A stretch of DNA of 64,000 nucleotides from contig OY987298.1 of assembly GCA_963920635.1 (NCBI GenBank), positions 132,217,180 to 132,281,179 on the forward strand, written 5' to 3'. The notes below the pieces were generated by a model that saw only the letters and a list, made by a program, of their open reading frames with translations, was not told the origin of the DNA and ran no database searches. The stretch is from Pseudeuparius sepicola (lineage: Eukaryota; Arthropoda; Insecta; Coleoptera; Anthribidae). Below, piece by piece: positions 19,829-33,066 of this stretch. Position numbers and translations under genes: made by a program. Each line of letters begins with the position of its first letter. Position 1 is the first letter of the stretch.

Positions 19829-20837
19829 TTAAAGTTTGTCTGTTTGAAAGCGCGGGCTGACAGACTGCTGACGCAAATTGGTCTGCAAGATAAACGGGGA
19901 TTTTTTCCGTATGTCTAATGATGTACCTAAGTGTAATATACAAATCGATAAAAAATGTATTTTGTGAGATATTTTCAAAAACCTTTTTTTGTTCGAAAGG
20001 TCTTCAAAAAACGCTTCTTTTGGCGTTTTTACTTTTGTCAAAATGCAAATCCAGGGACGGCTACGATTTTTTTATACCCCGATTTTCACAAAAACCATTT
20101 AGCGATTTTTTTATTTAAAATCTGACACAACAGAGTTAATCAGGACACCCCAAAACCCCCATATACTAAATTTGAACAAAAAATGTAGAGGGTGTTCGGT
20201 TCTACACCGTGTTAAAGTTGAGCAAAATAGGGACTTCAAAGGCACCTGGCGAGTCAAGCGTGCCATGGAATTATTTCAAAACAGTGGAAGAATTAACAGG
20301 ACCAGCCAAAGTGTTGATGGAAGAAATTGCAAGAAGAAATATACAGGATGTTTTTCTCTACAGCGTCTCAAATTTCCGATTTTTTTCGAATTTTATGCTG
20401 GTCAAGTTTGCCTTGGATTATTGAAACAATGTTACTAAATGTAAAATAAATTAATTTAAAAAATATATATAAAGATTCATTCAGTCATTTCCCTTGTGTT
20501 TACGAACAATATTCTAGTTTTTGTTTGGTAATAATTTTAAAAAATCTGTCCAGACAGTTTAAATTCGTAATAAAGATATTCGCAAAAATCAGATCTGCCA
20601 TGGAAATTAAAAAACAAGTCAATACAATAAATTTGACAGTTCTGTTAATCTTAATTTTTGGCCAACTTGTATACACAATGGAAGCGTTAACTTTGAGTGA
20701 CAAAATTGAGATTATCAGATTAACGGATGAAAATGTGCCTTATCGTGAAGTTGCTAGGATATTTTTTAATACACGTCATGAACGGAATATCCACTATTAT
20801 ACCCTAACAAAAATAAACAGAACATTTGACCTAGCGG

Positions 20838-20909
20838 GTAAGTGAAGTTGAAGAGCTGGAAAATTAATAAAATGAAATGCAATTATTGTACCTACCTATT
20901 GTTTTGTAG
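20838..20909 (+). other. intron 1 of the transposase gene
   Basis: 72-bp intron with donor GTAAGT and pyrimidine-rich acceptor CCTATTGTTTTGTAG. Splicing restores a Gly codon and continues into NVSITKIRGG. The open frames on both sides have no other junction that fits. Confidence 0.7.
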
Positions 20910-21473
20910 GAAATGTGTCTATAACAAAGATCAGAGGAGGTAATAACAACAACAGAACGTCTGAACAAATTTTAGAATATTTTCAGAACAATCCTAATAA
21001 TTCCTTAAATGATGCAGTTAGGGATTTGCTGCTGAAAAGATCTACAATTTGGAAAAGTTTAAAAATAAATAAATTAAAGGCACACGTTAGAAGTAGGAGA
21101 CATGGAACGAAGACTCGAATATTGTTTGTGGGCGCAAATAGATTATTTACGAATGAAGCAACTTTCACAACAAATGGGGTTGTTTCATCCCAGAATACAC
21201 GTTATTGGTCGGAAGAAAATCCTCATTTTGTTGTACACACTAAAAGCCAGTTCTCGCAAAAAGTAAATGTCTTTTGTGGGATAACTGACCACAGGGTGAT
21301 AGGACCTTTCTAAATGGTGCGCTCTTTCTGGAATTTTTGCGAGGCTACTTTCAAAACGCCCTCGACGATTTACCATTGCGAGAAACAAGAGATTTAACGA
21401 TACAGTTAAATGGAGCGCCTATCCATGGAACTCAAGCTGTCACTGAGTGGCTAAATAATAATTTTGACAACAG

Positions 21474-23772: not shown

Positions 23773-24174
23773 TGTTACGCGGACCGAGCGGTAAATAACT
23801 TTTTAAAAATTATTTTTTTTTTCACTTGGTTTTTATTTAATTATTACAAGAACCCTTTTTTACAATTGAACTGGATTTAATAATTGTTGGAAAAAATTGA
23901 ACAATTGGACTGAACAATGAATGCTAATAATAATGATTGTCTGTTGTGTGTTACTGTTAACTATTGCCGCCGAATGGCATCAGAGGCTTTTATAGCCTTT
24001 TGGTGCTTGGTAAGGGAAATGCTAGAAGCGCGAGATTTTTCCAGAGAGTCTTGGAACGGATGTGGAGTCTGTGTAATAGAAGAAGTCGAAGTTTGCAGAA
24101 ATTTAAGAAGCGTGATAACGTATTTATTTGAGACGTAGTTTCTGTGATTAGTTAGCGTATTTTCTGATATAACA
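23773..24174 (-). repeat. 3' LTR of the retroelement
   Basis: 402 bp with the same TG...CA ends as the 5' LTR. Preceded on the plus strand by the TACA duplication (23769-23772). The polypurine tract lies immediately inside. Confidence 0.95.
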
Positions 24175-24435: not shown

Positions 24436-26320
24436 TTAAGCTACGTTTTTATTAGTATTTAGTTCAACCTCCTCAAAGGTTTCATTTAGTTTTTCTTTAA
24501 AAGATCGTCTTTTCGACGGGATAAATCTTTGAAATATTTTATCTGTTTTTGGAGACTTCGGATTTTGGTTATCATTAGTGATTCTTATTTTAAAATCCTT
24601 AAAGCTACCTTTCTTTTTACATTTACAAAATATATACAATATGATCAATAATATTAATAAAACAATTACGAAGTAGGTGAACCAGGGGTAGTATTTTTGA
24701 GAATAAGGTTCGTTTATCAAGTCATCTAATTGTTTCGAATATTCGTTAAGTTTATGTTTTGCAACGTCTAAATCTTCATAATTTATGTTGTTTATTTTTA
24801 AGGGCTTTAGTTTTGGAATTTGTGTCTGAATGTTATTTGGTAACTTTTCACAACATTCGTAAGGTACCATAATTGGATGAAAGCTATAATTTATGTTTGA
24901 GACTTCTCGATTTTGAGATTTTATATAAATATCACCAATATATGCAAAACAATCGTCCTTTAGAGTTAAAATATAGTTACTTTTAATGGTATCTGAAATA
25001 ACCATGTTTTCTTTACATTTTATGGTGATAGGAGTTTCGTCTATACTTATTATTAACCAAACATTTTCTTGTAGGAATTGAACATTGTATCCTCTAAAAT
25101 CTACGACCATGTTTTCACAGGTAGAGGGTAATTGCATTTGGAATTTAAATAATTGCGCTTCACACGCAGAACTGGAAACAACAGGTGTTGCTATTAAATG
25201 TTTACAAATTTTTATGTTGTCTTGTAAATCTTTACATTTGTCTATATCAGAAACAATAACAAATTTACTAGAATCTTCATTTCTTGCGATATACTTTTTC
25301 TCATTTGGAAATAGCATATGGTACAGTTGGGTTCGATTGTCTTTTATGGGAATAGGATATAAGCGGAACATTATGAAATTTTCTGGCTCTGTTAGTGGAA
25401 TCTCTATTGCGAAAACTATCTTTGTGTCTGTCTGAAAGGCTTTGAGTTCAATTATTCCAAAATAATTTGAGATAAGAGTTGGAAAGACTGGTAATGGTAA
25501 GTGATTTCTTTGTAAATTTTCTGATATGTAACGTAATTGATTAATAAAATCATTTGGAGTTATAATTGAAGTGTGCATTATATTTAAACGAGAAAATGTA
25601 ATTGAATTCAAAATATCGTTTAATGTAAGTTCAATAAAAGAATATGATGCCATTAGTTGTTCTGCAATTTCAAAAATTTGTAATTTTGATTCATAAAAAC
25701 TTAAATCATCAACGATGTTATAAATACTTTCTTCAATTTTGACTATGTCTTCCTTAAACGTTTCTTCGTCTATCTGCAAATTTCTTAAAGTTTCATTGAA
25801 ATTCTTTATAACCGATGTGGTTACTGAGATTTGATTTTTCATTAAATTTTCAATTCTAGTTTCATCTTTACTTATTTTTTCTATACAATCATTAAAATAT
25901 TGTCCATCAGAAGCGTCAAGGTTACCAGTCAAGAATTTAAAAATACTTCCAATACCATTTACTAGACCACGTTTTGACCTGGTAGGCACGTCAAATTCTA
26001 ATTCCTTAAATTTATTTTCTATATCGTTTGAAATTTGGTTTAAGAGGCTAAGATGAGTTTCAACTTCAGACTTAAAGGCTTTCATTCGATTATTAGGAGC
26101 TGATGCTAACCTATATAAATTTTCTAATATAACATTATTTTTCTCAAAATTTTCTTTAAGTGTTGCCGTATCTTTATAAGTTAAAATTGTCCATTTGTCA
26201 TTCGAGATTTTTACATCAAATATTTCGTGATAGTATAAGCCTATAGTGTTTTTTATTGGTTCCAATTTGTATTGGTGATTTTCGAGGGGTATTCCTAAAA
26301 TCATGGCACATTGTAACAAT
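24436..26320 (-). CDS. env: retroelement envelope protein, F-protein/errantivirus type
   Basis: Open exon of 628 codons after a TTTTCTCTTTTCAG/A acceptor at 26321. The first in-frame ATG is at 26304, but the exon can be read from its first codon, so a short 5' exon probably provides the start and signal peptide. Counted from 26319, a furin-type site RSKR ends at residue 117 and is followed by a Gly-rich hydrophobic fusion-peptide-like stretch (118-131). A long helical ectodomain with a Cys cluster (about 365-500) follows, then a transmembrane segment (about 549-566) with a Cys/Lys-rich stop-transfer, and a tail of about 60 residues. This fits the baculovirus F-like Env of insect errantiviruses. 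The frame is intact. Confidence 0.88.
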
Positions 26321-26685: not shown

Positions 26686-27267
26686 TTATTCAACTTCTTG
26701 AGATTGTTTTTTGTTATCTTCATTCTCGTAGTATCTTTTTAGCATGTCAAAATTCACCTTACTAGTTTGCTCAGTGAGAGGGTTATAAATTAGAGCAGAA
26801 TTCCTATAAATTTCTCGAATTTCGAAGGGGCCGTTAAATTTGTTAGCTAATTTATTTTTTATTTGCGATTGTTTAACCCATACCTTTTCGCCTACATTGA
26901 ACTCATGCTGTTCTGATATCGTTTTGTCGAAGCGCACTTTTGCTTTCTGCTTTTTAAGGTCTGTTCGAGCGCGTGCTATATTATAATAATGTTTCATTTT
27001 TGAACTCAGGTCACGCACGTATTTTGTTATCAGCTGTTCCTCGCTGTATAAGGTTTCTGGGTGTCTAGATGATGTGTGTCCGAATATTAATTCGTATGGA
27101 GTATAGCCGTGGGTGTTATTTATAGAGTTATTATAACAAACGCATGCGTATGGGAGCAATTGTAAAGGGTGTTCACCTGGTGTTTCGAGGGTCATAGATC
27201 TAATCATTTCTAATAATGTGGCGTGAAACCTTTCAAGAGAACCGTTCGATTGAGGGTGATTTATAGA
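26686..27267 (-). CDS. retroelement integrase C-terminal part
   Basis: Continuation of the pol frame after the TAG at 27268-27270. It begins with the conserved NHPQSNGSLERFH block that holds the catalytic Glu. It then has NNSINNTHGYTPYELIFG, a basic stretch, and the C-terminal GEKVWVKQSQIKNKLANKFN / GPFEIREI module typical of gypsy integrases. Ends SQEVE at 26686. It lies 34 nt before a strong splice acceptor. Confidence 0.85.
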   Translation of the reverse strand, partial: SINHPQSNGSLERFHATLLEMIRSMTLETPGEHPLQLLPYACVCYNNSINNTHGYTPYELIFGHTSSRHPETLYSEEQLITKYVRDLSSKMKHYYNIARARTDLKKQKAKVRFDKTISEQHEFNVGEKVWVKQSQIKNKLANKFNGPFEIREIYRNSALIYNPLTEQTSKVNFDMLKRYYENEDNKKQSQEVE

Positions 27268-30200
27268 CTAATATGTTAGTTTTATATTATACAATTTACA
27301 AAGGTCGCTCATAATTTGGTTATTAAATTCCTTACCGCTATCGCAGTGTATTCGCATAGGGGCACCGTAGTGTTGGATATAAAAAATGACTTTATCTGCC
27401 ACTTCTCTAGCCGTTTTGTTCTGTAAAGGATATGCTTGGGTAAATTTGCTTAGTTCGTCCCTAATGGTTAGTACTAAATGTTTTGTGGGGATTTCTAAAA
27501 TATCTAGGTTGATTCTTTCGAAAGGGGCCTTAGGCGTTTCCGTAATAACTAATGGATTTGATAAATTTTTTCGACATATTTTTGCCTTTTGACAAATCTC
27601 GCATCGTTTAATGAAATTTTCTACGTCTTTAGTTAGACCAGGCCAATTGTATTTTACTCGGATTCTTCTTATAGTCTCGTTAATTCCTCGATGGAAATTT
27701 GCTTTTCCTGAATGGTAATTGTCTATTATAATTGGTATTTGATCTTCGTCAGGTTTTTGAACTACGTCTTGACATATTACAAGGTTTAAATTAATTTCAG
27801 CGAATATATAGCTAAATATTTCGAAAATAGGTAGTTCTACGTTATTTTCTATGTGGTACGTTTTGGATTCTTCGAATACATGTTTACATTGAAATAATGA
27901 TATGAATAAAACTTGAACAGCTGACTCGAAGTCATAGGGTAAATGAATTAAATAATATTTTCGATTTTTGACTGACTGACTAGTTACGACGTTAACTTGA
28001 TTTTGACTAAAGTCTGGGTTAAGTTCAAGAATATCTTCAAGAAGTTTTTCATGAAAATCAGTAATTTTGTCTTGCTGTAAAAATATAACAATATCCTTAT
28101 GAGACTTATCTAATAGTTGAGAATTGGAGGATTGTATTTTAGAAAAATCTATTATTGATTGAGTTTTATATAAATTTATGAATCTTGTGAATTCTCTTGC
28201 TATAGTTTCTAAATCGACATTAATTTCTTCCTGCGGGTTTTCGACATTCGAAGGTCCTGCCAATGGACTTAAACCAGTATGAAATATGTGATTAATTTTA
28301 ATCCTTGATAAAGCGTCTGCGTTTTTGTTAATTCTTCCAGGCTTGTACAAAATTTCGTAGTTATAGTCTTCCATTTTTAATCTCCATCTTGCTAAACGTG
28401 AACCGGGATCTTTTACATTAAATAAATAGGTTAAAGGACGATGATCAGTAACTAGTTTGAATTTTCTACCATAAATATATGGCCTAAAGGTCTTACATGC
28501 CCAGAGTATTGCCAAAAGTTCTTTCTCGATAGTACTGTATTTTGATTCTGCCGAGTTTAGGGTTCTGGAAGCATAAGCTATCGGGAGATCCTTTCCTATC
28601 GTTCCTTGTGACAGGACAGCTCCTACGGCTAAGTCTGATGCGTCGGTAGTGATTATAAAAGGTTCCTCAAAATTGGGATAAATTAAAATTGGACTTTTGG
28701 TTAAAATATCTTTAAGTTGAGAAAACGAATTTTCGCAATTTATATCGAAGTTAAATGGAACGTCTTTCTTTAGTAGGCTTGTCATTGGTTTTGCAATTTT
28801 CGCGAATTCTGGTATGAATCTTCTATAGTAGCCGGCTAGGCCTAAAAAGGATTTAATATCTTTTGGATTTTTAGGTTGAGGAAAATTTACTACCGCTTTA
28901 ATCTTTTCAGGATTCGGTTTTACGCCATCTTTAGTTACGACATGCCCTAAGTATGCCACTTCTTTTCTTAAAAACTCACATTTATCCGGTTGAATTTTCA
29001 AATTCGCTACGCGTAGTCTATCGAATACTTCAGATATTCTAGAGATATGCTCTTTAATTGTAGCAGAGTAAATTATAATATCGTCCATATACACTAAACA
29101 ACGTTCATTCTGTATACCTGTCAAAATATTATCTACCACCCTCTGAAACGTTGAGGGGGCGTTCTTGAGCCCGAATGGCATCCTAGTAAATTCAAAATGG
29201 CCGTTTTCTACTGAGAAAGCTGTTTTTTCTATGTCTTCTGTTTGTATTTCTATTTGGTGGAATCCGGAAGCTAAATCTAGGGTTGAAAAGTATTGACACC
29301 TGCCTAGTTGGTCTAAGAGATCATTTATATTCGGTAATGGATATTTATCGTCTATTGTGAGCTCATTTAATTTCCAATAATCTATCACAACTCGCCATTT
29401 TTGCTTATTACTGGCGTCCATTTTTTTTGGTACCACCCAAACGGGGGAACTCCATGGGCTAATTGAAGGTTTTATTATTCCTTGATCTAACATTTCTGAG
29501 ATTTGCCTTTTAACTTCTGTTTTGTGAATGTGAGGGTATCTATAGGATTTTGTATATACAGGTTTTGCATTATTAGTGTCGATCCGATGTTTTATTTGAT
29601 TAGTAAAGGTCAATCTATCTCTTTCGAGGTAGAAAATGTCAGAATATTCTAAACAAAGATCAGAAATTAACTGTTTTTCTTCTTGATTTAAGTGTCCTAA
29701 CCTTAACTGATTCCGTATTTCATTTTCTCGATTAATTTCGTTAATATTTAGAATTGGAATAGAATTATTAGGTAAGGGATCAAAATCACAAATTATTACT
29801 TCACATGGCACCGATTGAAATAAAAAGTTTATCATTTGTTTTATTTTATACCATTTTAATTTATCCAACCCACAAGCAATTTTCGGAAGCGCTAACCATT
29901 TGACATCATCAGCAAGAATTTTTTCTCGTAAGTCCTTAAGCGTAACCCATAAAGCATCGTAGTTTGGTTTATCGTTAAAATGTTTTTTCGTAATTAAATA
30001 GTACAGAAATCTATCGTTATCTCTTAACATGGCCACTTGTCCTACCTTCTTATCTTGGTTGAAAAGTTCAGAAACATTACCAAATTTTTGTTTAAATATT
30101 CTAGCTATTCCGGCATTCATTTTGAAATCTTCAGAAACACAGTGTCCTATAGAATATTTCTCCGGAATTAAAAATAAATCTACCTTTATTTCTTTAATTG

Positions 30201-30393
30201 TATCCGGCATAAAATGTTTTGATTTTTTGAAATTCTTAAACTCTTCATCAGTTCCTAAATTGAATTTTTGATAGGGAAAATTAGGTTCAACATTTTCTAT
30301 TGGTATTTCCGTTTCATCGCATGGTTCTATCTTAATATCATTAAATTTGACAGTTTGTTCAGTTTCATTATTATTTAGGATAGTGGTTAAAAA
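27268..30393 (-). CDS. pol: retroelement pol: macrodomain, reverse transcriptase, RNase H, integrase N part
   Basis: Open for 1,041 codons; residues are counted from the Met at 30210. Residues 8-142 read as a macrodomain (separate entry). The RT covers about 220-400, with VVIDYWKLNELT, STLDLASGFHQI, and catalytic YMDD at 374-377. RNase H follows with Asp 523 (TTDASD), Glu 564 (EKELLAIL), Asp 589 (VTDHRPL) and Asp 632 (NADALSR). Integrase has the HHCC zinc finger (His 833, His 840, Cys 870, Cys 873) and the first two acidic residues, Asp 903 and Asp 957. The frame hits TAG at 27268-27270 shortly before the expected catalytic Glu, which lies beyond the stop. The protein belongs to the Ty3/gypsy type. 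Confidence 0.92.
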   Translation of the reverse strand, partial: FLTTILNNNETEQTVKFNDIKIEPCDETEIPIENVEPNFPYQKFNLGTDEEFKNFKKSKHFMPDTIKEIKVDLFLIPEKYSIGHCVSEDFKMNAGIARIFKQKFGNVSELFNQDKKVGQVAMLRDNDRFLYYLITKKHFNDKPNYDALWVTLKDLREKILADDVKWLALPKIACGLDKLKWYKIKQMINFLFQSVPCEVIICDFDPLPNNSIPILNINEINRENEIRNQLRLGHLNQEEKQLISDLCLEYSDIFYLERDRLTFTNQIKHRIDTNNAKPVYTKSYRYPHIHKTEVKRQISEMLDQGIIKPSISPWSSPVWVVPKKMDASNKQKWRVVIDYWKLNELTIDDKYPLPNINDLLDQLGRCQYFSTLDLASGFHQIEIQTEDIEKTAFSVENGHFEFTRMPFGLKNAPSTFQRVVDNILTGIQNERCLVYMDDIIIYSATIKEHISRISEVFDRLRVANLKIQPDKCEFLRKEVAYLGHVVTKDGVKPNPEKIKAVVNFPQPKNPKDIKSFLGLAGYYRRFIPEFAKIAKPMTSLLKKDVPFNFDINCENSFSQLKDILTKSPILIYPNFEEPFIITTDASDLAVGAVLSQGTIGKDLPIAYASRTLNSAESKYSTIEKELLAILWACKTFRPYIYGRKFKLVTDHRPLTYLFNVKDPGSRLARWRLKMEDYNYEILYKPGRINKNADALSRIKINHIFHTGLSPLAGPSNVENPQEEINVDLETIAREFTRFINLYKTQSIIDFSKIQSSNSQLLDKSHKDIVIFLQQDKITDFHEKLLEDILELNPDFSQNQVNVVTSQSVKNRKYYLIHLPYDFESAVQVLFISLFQCKHVFEESKTYHIENNVELPIFEIFSYIFAEINLNLVICQDVVQKPDEDQIPIIIDNYHSGKANFHRGINETIRRIRVKYNWPGLTKDVENFIKRCEICQKAKICRKNLSNPLVITETPKAPFERINLDILEIPTKHLVLTIRDELSKFTQAYPLQNKTAREVADKVIFYIQHYGAPMRIHCDSGKEFNNQIMSDLCKLYNIKLTY
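29782..30189 (-). CDS. OARD1/TARG1-like macrodomain within pol
   Basis: About 135 residues between protease and RT. By recalled family sequence this matches the ADP-ribose glycohydrolase OARD1 (TARG1) throughout. The ligand loop is HCVSEDFKMNAGIARIFKQK (residues 23-42), then VGQVAML, YYLITKKHFNDKPNYDALW with Lys 75/76, and LALPKIACGLDKLKW with Asp 116, then VIICDF. The Lys of TKK and the Asp of CGLD are the positions of the catalytic lysine and aspartate in human OARD1 (K84, D125), so hydrolase activity on ADP-ribosylated glutamate/aspartate is plausible. In most gypsy elements RT follows protease directly. Origin by capture of a host gene is an inference. Confidence 0.85.
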
Positions 30394-31038
30394 TTAACCT
30401 TTTTCGTTTATATGAACGAGTGCATTTGGGAGATAGACTTTATTTATTTCTTGTCCGAGTATAATTGCATCGACGTCTGTGAATTTTGAAGTAGTCAGTT
30501 TACATATTTTCTCAACTCTTGGTTCGATTGTTACAGCATTTATATTTGAAGAAATGTTTTGTTCGGTTGTTTTATTTTCGTCAGTAGTAAAATATAGAGG
30601 GATTTGAGCGTAATTTGTAATAAGTTTTCGTCTTCCATAACTAATATCTGCGTCGAATCTCATAAGAAAATCATTTCCTAAAATACCGTCAAATTCTAGA
30701 GGGAGTTCAAAAACATAAATTTTATGAGGGATCTCTTGTTCACTCATAGGGACTATAACTGATTGAGTTATTAAATGTTCGTCATTCGATATGCCTTTTA
30801 TTGTTATATTTTCCTGGTCGGAGTATTCTGAATAATTTTGGGCTACATGAGGTTTAATAATAGAAATTGATGCTCCCGAATCTATTAGAAGTTTATAATT
30901 TTGATTTGTACTTTTAATATAAATTAATCGTTCTTTAGGTACGACGTAAACACTTAGGTCAATTGGGTATTTTGGTTTATCGACAAGTTCTCGAAAGTTT
31001 TCTCTAAATTCCGGTCCGAGGCTTGTTGAGGAAAATTT
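30394..31038 (-). CDS. retroelement protease region of pro-pol
   Basis: Reached from gag by -1 frameshift. It contains the retropepsin active site in LLIDSGASISII (Asp codon at 30882-30880) and the flap/C-terminal signature FDGILGNDFLMRF. The frame ends at a TAA at 30394-30396 after VHINEKG; beyond that stop the same frame continues open into the macrodomain and RT. The stop is therefore either a recent nonsense mutation or, less likely, a programmed stop. Other copies of the element would tell which. Confidence 0.85.
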   Translation of the reverse strand, partial: KFSSTSLGPEFRENFRELVDKPKYPIDLSVYVVPKERLIYIKSTNQNYKLLIDSGASISIIKPHVAQNYSEYSDQENITIKGISNDEHLITQSVIVPMSEQEIPHKIYVFELPLEFDGILGNDFLMRFDADISYGRRKLITNYAQIPLYFTTDENKTTEQNISSNINAVTIEPRVEKICKLTTSKFTDVDAIILGQEINKVYLPNALVHINEKG

Positions 31039-32111
31039 ATGGGTTCTCGTCTGTCGTTAGGAATAGTCCCGGATGTGGAAGGAGTTGGTCTATGTGTCAT
31101 CGATACGTAGTTTGTCCTTTGTGGGTAGTTATTACTCCGGTAATTATTGTCGCTGTTACTGGTGGATGGTCTTTCGTTATAGGAATTTTGTCTAGGATGG
31201 TAAGTACTAGGAGGATTATAATTATTTTGTCTAGGGAAATTAAAATTGTTCTGTCTAGGAGGGTTAAAGTTCTGGTTTTGTCTAGGGTAATTTGAAAAAT
31301 TAGGACGAGATGGTCCTGGAGAGTTATTTTGAGTATAAAAATTCGTCTGTCTTTGCGAATTGTTATATTGTCTAGTACGGCATTCGTCAATCAAGTGTCC
31401 TGTCTTTTTACAATAGTTACAGACTTTAGTCGGCGTTTGTTGTGCAAATCTTTGCGTAGGTCTTGGGTTTGGATTTCGTGGTAAGGAAAATCTTTGGTTT
31501 TCGAAATATGATAATTGCATTTCCCTTTTAATTCTGGCTACCGCATCTACCATGTTAGTCGGATTACTAGCTCGAATGATCTGGCCTATTTTTGGTTCTA
31601 GCCCTGTTAATAGAGTGTTTAGAGTCATGTCTTCTATTAATTGGACTTGAGCTTGTTTTTGCGCTCGCGTCAAGTTTTGTTTTGAAATAGCCGATTGCAT
31701 TTTGGAATCTAAATTTATTATTTTATTACAGAAAGTTAAGGGACTTTCTTGCGGGAGTTGCCTAAGCCTCTGAAGATCTTGAATTAAAGAATTTAGGTCT
31801 CTCGGGTCGCCAAAGTGGACTTGTAATAAATTAGAAATATCCGGCCATTCGTTAATATCCCGACTGTTAATCAGCTGGGCTGCGCGTCCGCGAAGTTGAT
31901 TTTTTATTTTTATTACGAGAAAGGTAACTTGATCTTCTGTACAGATATCGTATGCCGTATTACAAGCATTGAGGAATGTATTAAGTGCAACTGAATCGCC
32001 GTCATATTCTGGTATTAGCATAAATATATCTCTTAAATCGTAGGAAATTTGTTCAGTAGTTTCGACAATAGTTTCGTTAGGGTCAACATTATCATCGCCT
32101 TGTCCTGACAT
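30954..32111 (-). CDS. gag: retroelement gag polyprotein
   Basis: A 385-residue structural protein from ATG at 32111 (MSGQGDDNVD). An in-frame TTG further upstream would lengthen it but is not needed. The middle has the capsid-like helical region of gypsy Gag (PEYDGDSVALNTFLNACN, then FGDPRDLNSL, LPQESPLTF). It is followed by a single CCHC zinc knuckle CNYCKKTGHLIDEC and a long Arg/Asn/Pro/Gln-rich tail with repeated PRQNN-type words, which suits nucleic-acid binding. The frame is fully open. It overlaps the protease frame by about 100 nt, with a candidate slippery site at 31038-31032. Confidence 0.9.
   Translation of the reverse strand: MSGQGDDNVDPNETIVETTEQISYDLRDIFMLIPEYDGDSVALNTFLNACNTAYDICTEDQVTFLVIKIKNQLRGRAAQLINSRDINEWPDISNLLQVHFGDPRDLNSLIQDLQRLRQLPQESPLTFCNKIINLDSKMQSAISKQNLTRAQKQAQVQLIEDMTLNTLLTGLEPKIGQIIRASNPTNMVDAVARIKREMQLSYFENQRFSLPRNPNPRPTQRFAQQTPTKVCNYCKKTGHLIDECRTRQYNNSQRQTNFYTQNNSPGPSRPNFSNYPRQNQNFNPPRQNNFNFPRQNNYNPPSTYHPRQNSYNERPSTSNSDNNYRSNNYPQRTNYVSMTHRPTPSTSGTIPNDRREPINFPQQASDRNLEKTFENLSINQNTQLT
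31032..31038 (-). promoter_or_regulatory. -1 ribosomal frameshift site, A AAT TTT
   Basis: On the sense strand AAATTTT sits in the gag frame as A-AAT-TTT, a canonical X XXY YYZ heptamer. It lies inside the gag/pro overlap (pro frame open from 31056, gag stops at 30954). The pro frame is exactly -1 relative to gag. No downstream stem-loop was folded. Confidence 0.65.
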
Positions 32112-32452
32112 CTTTAAAATTATTCGCGTATTATGAGAGAAAGTATAAAGCAATCACAAAAATAAAATTACTAAGACTACCAAAGATTATCAAGAAATTA
32201 TTAGAAATTGTCAAAAATTATTAAAAATATATCAAAAATTGCCAAAAATTGAAACAAAACACAATATCAAATAAAATAACTCACATTAGTGAAAACTTCT
32301 GCATCAGGAAGTAGCTCTGGAAGTCGATGTCGCCTCTCTGCCGAAAGTGGAGTAGTATACGTTGGCTCACGCTCGATGCGCTGCTACTAGTGCCTCCGCA
32401 ACTTCGCCGGTTCCCAAGGGATATGCGCCGTTGAAGTTGAATTTTCTTCTGC
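32112..32452 (-). other. retroelement leader between tandem repeats and gag
   Basis: Untranslated leader. The first ATG of the gag frame is at 32111. The stretch 32153-32280 contains repeated AAATTRTYAARAAT-like words on the plus strand. A splice donor for env is expected here or in early gag but could not be pinned down. Confidence 0.5.
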
Positions 32453-32665: not shown

Positions 32666-33066
32666 TGTTACGCGGACCGAGCGGTAAATAACTTTTTAAA
32701 AATTATTTTTTTTTCACTTGGTTTTTATTTAATTATTACAAGAACCCTTTTTTACAATTGAACTGGATTTAATAATTGTTGGAAAAAATTGAACAATTGG
32801 ACTGAACAATGAATGCTAATAATAATGATTGTCTGTTGTGTGTTACTGTTAACTATTGCCGCCGAATGGCATCAGAGGCTTTTATAGCCTTTTGGTGCTT
32901 GGTAAGGGAAATGATAGAAGCGCGAGATTTTTCCAGAGAGTCTTGGAACGGATGTGGAGTCTGTGTAATAGAAGAAGTCGAAGTTTGCAGAAATTTAAGA
33001 AGCGTGATAACGTATTTATTTGAGACGTAGTTTCTGTGATTAGTTAGCGTATTTTCTGATATAACA
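32666..33066 (-). repeat. 5' LTR of the retroelement
   Basis: 401 bp, TGTTACGCGGACC to CTGATATAACA on the plus strand. By eye it differs from the other LTR by one substitution (GAAATGATAG against GAAATGCTAG) and one T in a homopolymer. Followed by TACA target duplication at 33067-33070. Confidence 0.95.

What the first reader, a model, noticed from the sequence alone, without database searches (positions are those of the whole stretch)
29782..30189. TARG1/OARD1-like macrodomain built into the pol gene of an env-bearing gypsy element
Seen: between the protease (DSGA at 30882) and RT, in the same open frame, is about 135 residues carrying HCVSEDFKMNAGIARIFKQK, YYLITKKHFNDKP and LPKIACGLDKLKW. 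Known: this is the pattern of ADP-ribose glycohydrolase OARD1, whose catalytic Lys and Asp sit in the TKK and CGLD motifs; both positions are kept. Inference: an insect endogenous retrovirus has captured a host de-ADP-ribosylating enzyme. Macrodomains help some RNA viruses counter host ADP-ribosylation, so a retroelement carrying one could be doing the same, or could process ADP-ribosylated integration intermediates. Loss of residues would be expected if it were useless, yet the core motifs look intact.
Basis: partly seen in the sequence, partly recalled or inferred. Interest (0 to 1): 0.88.

Follow-up and report, generated by a model that had tools for sequence, protein, structure and literature searches.

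The report
De-ADP-ribosylating enzyme inside retrovirus-like Pol
A family of virus-like jumping genes carries a copy of an animal enzyme (TARG1) that strips ADP-ribose from proteins and DNA, and its relatives hold that enzyme at several different places in their replication protein, which hints at a hidden contest between these elements and a cell defence based on ADP-ribose.

Summary

It is no one-off. Ten genomic copies, the window's included, are identical over 170 residues. Relatives in this genome carry an intact domain at three Pol sites: PR|RT (window), RNaseH|integrase, after integrase. Selection is purifying (omega 0.09-0.20; RT 0.03).

The parts
32666..33066 (-). 5' LTR (element lies on the minus strand)
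   Evidence: 99.5% identical to 23773-24174 over 402 alignment columns, 1 mismatch and 1 gap; TG...CA ends
23773..24174 (-). 3' LTR; TACA on both sides of the element (4-bp target duplication)
30954..32153 (-). gag ORF (399 aa)
   Evidence: PF03732 Retrotrans_gag E=4e-4, 21 bits, below its cut-off 24.1
30394..30939 (-). protease region (DSGA motif near 30882), ended by a stop codon in this copy
29770..30210 (-). MACRO: TARG1/OARD1-type macrodomain (matched core 29794-30201)
29986..29988 (-). K75 codon = TARG1 catalytic Lys84
   Evidence: alignment; invariant in 18 of 18 rows of A3
29863..29865 (-). D116 codon = TARG1 catalytic residue 125
   Evidence: alignment; invariant in 18 of 18 rows of A3
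28801..29595 (-). reverse transcriptase segment used in the analyses (residues 206-470)
   Evidence: PF00078 E=6e-39 on the ORF
28276..28770 (-). RNase H segment (residues 481-645)
   Evidence: PF17917 E=2e-39 on the ORF
27748..28215 (-). LINK: decayed macrodomain between RNase H and integrase (Pol residues 666-821), no catalytic Lys or Asp visible
26686..27765 (-). integrase (H2C2 zinc domain, core, C-terminal part), frame broken between 27207 and 27268 in this copy
24436..26319 (-). env, baculovirus F-like fusion protein, 627-aa ORF
   Evidence: PF12259 E=2.8e-34

Best explanation
The window holds a young, broken copy of an env-bearing Ty3/gypsy (errantivirus-like) element whose Pol contains two macrodomains. 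(1) Between protease and RT is a TARG1/ALC1-class ADP-ribosyl hydrolase domain with an intact Lys/Asp catalytic pair. (2) Between RNase H and integrase is a decayed macrodomain without visible catalytic residues, inherited from an ancestral Pol macrodomain of this clade. Relatives repeatedly gained or moved an intact TARG1 domain to other places in Pol, so selection acts on having the activity inside Pol, not on one location. Proposed mechanism: packaged with Pol, the domain strips ADP-ribose put on by host ADP-ribosyltransferases from the element's own nucleic acids (cDNA bases or termini, RNA ends) or from Gag/Pol, protecting reverse transcription and integration. Shown here: sequence, predicted fold, catalytic residues, several positions, purifying selection. 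Inferred: catalytic activity, packaging, substrate, counter-defence.
Against: No activity, expression or packaging data. Many close relatives show no intact macrodomain (P0013-P0044, some of them incomplete proteins), so it is dispensable for many elements. MACRO evolves 3-7 times faster than RT by omega. dS is saturated between families, so omega rests on a codon model and on close pairs. Whether intact copies come from several captures or one is not resolved: AU tests do not reject one retroelement clade (p=0.319) or one own-genome clade (p=0.125). The domain after MACRO in type-B elements did not match the decayed macrodomain (prob 0.6 and 0.5). For LINK, direct profile comparison with the TARG1 set failed (prob 1.8) and so did a PDB sequence search.
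Confidence: 0.6

Rival explanations
1. One reading: the domain binds ADP-ribosylated chromatin or DNA breaks and steers the pre-integration complex there, as chromodomains at the integrase C-terminus do in chromoviruses (recalled).
For: Type C puts MACRO after integrase and type B between RNase H and integrase. ALC1-class macrodomains include readers (PMC7050489 passage).
Against: The window type lies between protease and RT, away from integrase. Reading does not need the Lys/Asp pair, yet 77 of 80 distinct copies keep both.
Confidence: 0.2
2. Structural spacer or passenger: a foldable host domain tolerated in flexible Pol linkers, with no ADP-ribose function. This may now be true of the decayed LINK domain.
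For: LINK has lost the catalytic residues but keeps fold and constraint (omega 0.105, 9 sequences). P0013-P0044 show only that one.
Against: For the intact domain: catalytic residues are kept across three positions and several families, and MACRO is kept in 4 of 23 mapped loci that have no detectable RT.
Confidence: 0.12
3. Metabolite clean-up: hydrolysis of O-acetyl-ADP-ribose or ADP-ribose phosphates rather than of conjugates on the element.
For: TARG1 acts on O-acyl-ADP-ribose; yeast Poa1p entries also match the models.
Confidence: 0.06
4. Artefact or one-off: chance similarity, assembly chimera or a host gene next to the element.
For: None found.
Against: Identical domain at ten genomic places including the window, 9 of the 10 with RT and RNase H in the same frame; other families in the same genome; 11 proteins from other sources with it, 8 of them with an RT domain.
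Confidence: 0.01

Closest known systems
TARG1/OARD1/C6orf130 (ALC1-like macrodomain hydrolases, with bacterial DarG)
   Same: Sequence E=1e-36, 43% identity over 141 residues by fold, catalytic Lys and Asp kept, minimal macrodomain
   Different: Embedded in a retroelement Pol rather than stand-alone; substrate untested
Errantivirus / Ty3-gypsy elements with baculovirus F-like Env (Metaviridae)
   Same: gag-pol-env, PR-RT-RNaseH-IN order, Baculo_F env, TG/CA LTRs, 4-bp duplication TACA
   Different: Extra intact TARG1 domain in Pol and a RNaseH-IN linker recognised here as a decayed macrodomain. Not compared with the named Errantivirus species, whose sequences I did not have
Fish endogenous retroviruses with extra ORFs encoding CNPase or macro domain proteins
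   Same: A retrovirus-like element carrying a macrodomain (PMC4977317, one passage, citing Basta et al. 2009, which was not held)
   Different: Ray-finned-fish epsilon-like retroviruses with additional ORFs; here the domain is built into Pol of a Ty3/gypsy element, at several sites among relatives. Their macrodomain class was not checked
Viral macrodomains of alphaviruses, coronaviruses, rubella and hepatitis E virus
   Same: Macrodomain inside a viral replication polyprotein; for alphavirus nsP3 tied to interference with stress granules and to viral replication (PMC7050489 passage). Their counter-ADP-ribosylation role is recalled
Chromodomain-bearing Ty3/gypsy integrases (chromoviruses)
   Same: Accessory host-type domain fused to Pol (chromodomain as accessory domain: PMC6338049 passage); in type C after integrase
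   Different: Enzyme-type domain at several sites; no targeting shown

Membership tests
TARG1/OARD1-type macrodomain hydrolase (window 29770-30210) | Significant sequence relationship to TARG1 | tested here: met
   E=1e-36, 129.8 bits
TARG1/OARD1-type macrodomain hydrolase (window 29770-30210) | Macro fold closest to TARG1 | tested here: met
TARG1/OARD1-type macrodomain hydrolase (window 29770-30210) | Catalytic pair equivalent to Lys84 and residue 125 | tested here: met
   K75 and D116; invariant in A3, 18 rows
TARG1/OARD1-type macrodomain hydrolase (window 29770-30210) | Pfam Macro PF01661 at its gathering score | tested here: not met
   14.3 bits against 22. Not read as a defining biochemical feature: P0103, with both catalytic residues, also falls short at 17.8 bits and P0108 only just passes at 22.5
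TARG1/OARD1-type macrodomain hydrolase (window 29770-30210) | ADP-ribosyl hydrolase activity | not testable with these tools
   Needs purified protein
Macrodomain superfamily (LINK, window 27748-28215) | Macro fold | tested here: met
Macrodomain superfamily (LINK, window 27748-28215) | Sequence-profile relationship to known macrodomains | tested here: inconclusive
   Direct hhalign to the TARG1 set prob 1.8, to the iterated macro profile 71, no PDB sequence at E<=10; through intermediate linkers prob 91-97, controls under 1
TARG1-type hydrolase (LINK) | Catalytic Lys and Asp | tested here: not met
   YYLITKK of MACRO corresponds to YYLIHLP in LINK and the CGLD stretch has no counterpart (my reading and the hhalign)
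Errantivirus / env-bearing Metaviridae | gag, pol (PR-RT-RNaseH-IN), F-like env, LTRs, 4-bp target duplication | tested here: met
   gag and protease by weak or visual match
Errantivirus / env-bearing Metaviridae | Placement by RT phylogeny among named errantiviruses | not tested
   No named Errantivirus species was in the row set of the tree

The most novel reading that the evidence does not exclude
An ADP-ribosyl hydrolase is an old, overlooked part of the Pol of a broad clade of Ty3/gypsy elements (insect, as far as their hosts are named): their RNaseH-integrase linker is a TARG1-type macrodomain in every stage from intact to unrecognisable. Lineages whose old domain decayed take up a new catalytic copy at another Pol site. 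That turnover would be the trace of a continuing conflict in which hosts ADP-ribosylate retroelement cDNA, RNA or particle proteins, a defence that I have not seen described against retrotransposons in invertebrates.
Probability: 0.4. Interest if true: 0.9.

Novelty: new variant of a known kind. Interest (0 to 1): 0.8.

Why it matters
TARG1 is described as the only hydrolytically active ALC1-like macrodomain in animals, and it repairs ADP-ribosylated single-stranded DNA (PMC7050489, PMC8501950; passages). A reverse-transcribing element makes single-stranded DNA outside the genome, so Pol with its own TARG1 points to ADP-ribosylation as a possible, so far untested, restriction of retroelements. 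A review already speculates that RNA ADP-ribosylation could help recognise transposon-derived RNA (PMC7050489, passage). Because the Pfam model scores these domains below or at its cut-off, existing annotations probably overlook many; the profile made here finds them. Two macrodomains in one Pol, one with its catalytic residues and one decayed, make the question testable with purified proteins.

Tried and rejected
Pfam scan of the domain at E<=1e-3 gave nothing; at E<=10 Macro appears at 14.3 bits. Direct profile comparison of LINK with the TARG1 set alone failed (prob 1.8), as did a profile search of PDB sequences; the link rests on fold and intermediate profiles. Comparison of the segment after MACRO in type-B elements with LINK failed, so I do not claim a second macrodomain there. 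Foldseek of LINK against PDB had no match at E<=1e-3; against viral models 3 of 624 matches with E<=10 had E<=1e-3.

The idea that the intact domain simply descends from the RNaseH-IN site in all families is disfavoured by three positions among close RTs, but AU tests do not settle single versus multiple origin. The test of type B plus P0003 as one clade is borderline (p=0.0501). A one-off host insertion is rejected. Host identification, and a search for macro-less copies of the window's own family by RT, were attempted repeatedly but the genome search was busy; two searches were later answered, the others never. The host's own TARG1 gene was not found among the 150 best-scored matches, as retroelement copies fill the list where mapped. 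An OTU-like motif beside the domain in P0007 and P0009-P0012 was seen by eye; Pfam did not support it for the two that were scanned, P0009 and P0010.

Mended on re-check: a first rate set of 46 copies (omega 0.160; median dN/dS 0.18 for 253 of 1035 pairs) mixed in one place fetched twice, RT-less copies, an after-integrase copy and two of unsure type. The set holds 41 copies: those mapped as type B and those at least 85% identical to one. Likewise the count of catalytic residues (81 of 84) held four places fetched twice; one search gives 77 of 80.

Rows dropped: the RT tree used 118 of 135 proteins (redundant own-genome copies left out); the MACRO tree used 55 rows, leaving out redundant copies, 18 linker domains taken as decayed (one of them, P0115, keeps the Asp) and hits under 110 residues.

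Full report
Observation. The 27268-30210 minus-strand ORF (980 aa) opens with a domain that phmmer matches to human TARG1/OARD1 at E=1e-36 over residues 4-139. The ORF then holds RVT_1, two RNase H models, H2C2 zinc finger and part of the integrase core; upstream are protease and gag, downstream a baculovirus F-like Env. LTRs at 32666-33066 and 23773-24174 are 99.5% identical and the element is flanked by TACA on both sides, so this is a young insertion. This copy is broken: a stop separates protease and macrodomain, and the integrase frame is interrupted. In the host genome 150 of 878 candidate places were scored; 23 belong to the window's family (79-100% identity), 10 of them, the window's included, identical over 170 residues, and 8 of the 23 lie in open frames of 1392-1456 aa.

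Several positions in one genome. Of 23 long loci fetched around macro copies and mapped with the window's own domains, 5 have protease-MACRO-RT (L035, L039, L042, L043, L045), 8 have RT-RNaseH-MACRO (L031-L034, L040, L044, L046, L051; integrase follows in 6, not in L046 and L051), 5 have MACRO after integrase (L047-L050, L096), 4 have MACRO but no RT match in the 6.4 kb fetched (L036, L037, L038, L041), and 1 is a distant Ty3 element (RT 43% identical) with protease-MACRO-RT, its protease read by eye (L095). Frameshifts break some of these copies (for example L035). RT identity to the window is 82-84% in L039, L042, L043 and L045 and 78% in L047, while MACRO identity is 51-53% and 48%. A search with a shark OARD1 again filled its 150 scored places (of 849 candidates) with such copies; about 23 rows, counted by eye, report a 1498-aa open frame, the after-integrase type where mapped.

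Elsewhere. A protein search with residues 1-150 gave 11 proteins from other sources, 8 with an RT domain, including Harmonia axyridis and Leptinotarsa decemlineata. A second search with residues 470-830 gave 119 further Pol proteins among the 120 listed of 4859 hits; this listing was drawn by RNaseH-linker-integrase similarity, not by macrodomain. Of 123 proteins with both RNase H and integrase zinc matches, 112 have a linker of 100 aa or more. A TARG1-type profile finds 47 of these 112, and 70 of 112 after one iteration. Four of the 112 came only from the macrodomain search; without them and the window the counts are 43 and 66 of 107. The profile's seed was human TARG1, the window's domain and the 12 proteins, some of which (P0141, perhaps P0134-P0136) may be retroelement pieces themselves. 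Reversed linkers give 0 of 112. Some linkers keep both catalytic residues (P0102, P0103, P0114, P0118, P0123 and others). In a group of 22 linkers that I call lepidopteran-type, because its five named members are moths and butterflies, 17 passed E<=1e-8: all keep the Lys, and the Asp is Ser or Thr in 16 and kept in one (P0115). The 42 not found are the window, P0013-P0044 and nine more. Eleven of 123 have linkers of 0-84 aa (the 0, P0127, comes from domain order), six to fifteen residues in seven of them: an empty-site state.

Selection. IQ-TREE MG+F3X4 estimates: MACRO 0.197 (41 RNaseH|IN-type copies, 36 distinct; lnL -1707.6 against -1769.3 at omega 1), 0.103 (9 sequences of mixed type), 0.090 (10 PR|RT and after-integrase sequences); LINK 0.105 (9); RT 0.029 and 0.028 (9 each); integrase core 0.041 (8); RNase H 0.014 (4 only). 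In one search fixing omega at 1 lowers lnL by 87 to 442 units. Between families dS is saturated. Closer pairs agree: L089 against L047-L050 has dN 0.013-0.020 and dS 0.23-0.27, and RT-less L028 against L025-L027 dN 0.041-0.050, dS 0.24-0.30. Of 820 RNaseH|IN-type pairs, 154 fall in 0.05<dS<1.5, with median dN/dS 0.22. Very close pairs are noisier; one (L041-L038) has dN 0.019 and dS 0.014. Copies of a dead element decay neutrally, so values well under 1 reflect selection during the elements' active history.

History. On the RT-RNaseH tree (118 rows, quick method) the window groups with L042/L043 (98) inside a 33-row set (95) whose other members show no intact domain except the after-integrase family; L043 appears there as 'none' only because its macrodomain lies in another open frame of that copy. 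Type B (L031/L033) sits with P0003 (99) outside that set; P0108, with an intact domain before protease and a decayed one in the linker, sits inside the P0052 group. On the MACRO tree (55 rows) the own-genome PR|RT, RNaseH|IN and RT-less domains form one clade (100/97) although their Pol positions differ, and the after-integrase domains stand apart. So domains have moved between co-resident families, or were taken repeatedly from one source. AU tests do not reject a single retroelement clade (p=0.319) or a single own-genome clade (p=0.125).

Mechanism. In the loci mapped the domain lies in the pol part, not within gag or env, and several sites serve. That favours an enzyme acting inside particles or replication complexes over a site-specific structural role. 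TARG1 activities fit substrates a retroelement offers: thymidine-linked ADP-ribose on ssDNA, phosphate-linked ADP-ribose at nucleic-acid ends, and Asp/Glu-linked ADP-ribose on protein. I rate hydrolase activity about 0.8 likely and protection of the element's nucleic acids or proteins about 0.6. The chief rival is a reader or tether role near integrase.

Literature. Eight searches combining macro domain, macrodomain, Appr-1-p, TARG1 or OARD1 with errantivirus, gypsy, LTR retrotransposon, endogenous retrovirus and like words showed no report of this arrangement. I saw listings only, cut short in three: 20 of 38 papers, 20 of 1,142, 15 of 271. Beyond listings I saw passages of PMC4977317 and PMC6338049. 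The library is open-licence PMC only. The nearest precedent is fish retroviruses with macro domain ORFs (passage only).

Limits. The host was not identified and its own TARG1 gene was not isolated. Named relatives with a macrodomain match come from beetles, moths, butterflies, a bee and an ant (names; matches). Named errantiviruses were not compared.

Noticed in passing
L036, L025-L029; L037; L038; L041: Elements with no RT match in the stretch fetched that keep gag, protease and MACRO, or MACRO-integrase-env: probably non-autonomous derivatives that retain the macrodomain (of L025-L029 only the L026 place was mapped, as L036).
   Followed up: partly
P0007, P0009-P0012: Distant Ty3-type proteins with MACRO near protease also carry a DGDCGAHAL stretch that looks like an OTU cysteine protease (recalled motif); Pfam did not support it for the two scanned, P0009 and P0010.
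   Followed up: partly
P0006: A Leptinotarsa decemlineata gene model called tropomodulin isoform X2 is fused with a macrodomain-bearing Pol, probably an annotation chimera.
   Followed up: no
L095 (G000:C5:25754153-25762596): A distant Ty3 family in the same genome has a protease-like end, MACRO, and RT about 2.4 kb further on.
   Followed up: partly
L092, L093, L094: TARG1-like macrodomains in IMG/VR contigs with no RT match in the stretch held, 33-41% identical.
   Followed up: no
window 20525-21313 +: Two short ORFs, the first with a weak CENP-B_N match (E=7e-4, below cut-off), probably remains of a DNA transposon.
   Followed up: no
L061, L084, L039: Three own-genome copies with the catalytic Asp changed (Asn, Asn, Gly) while Lys is kept.
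   Followed up: no
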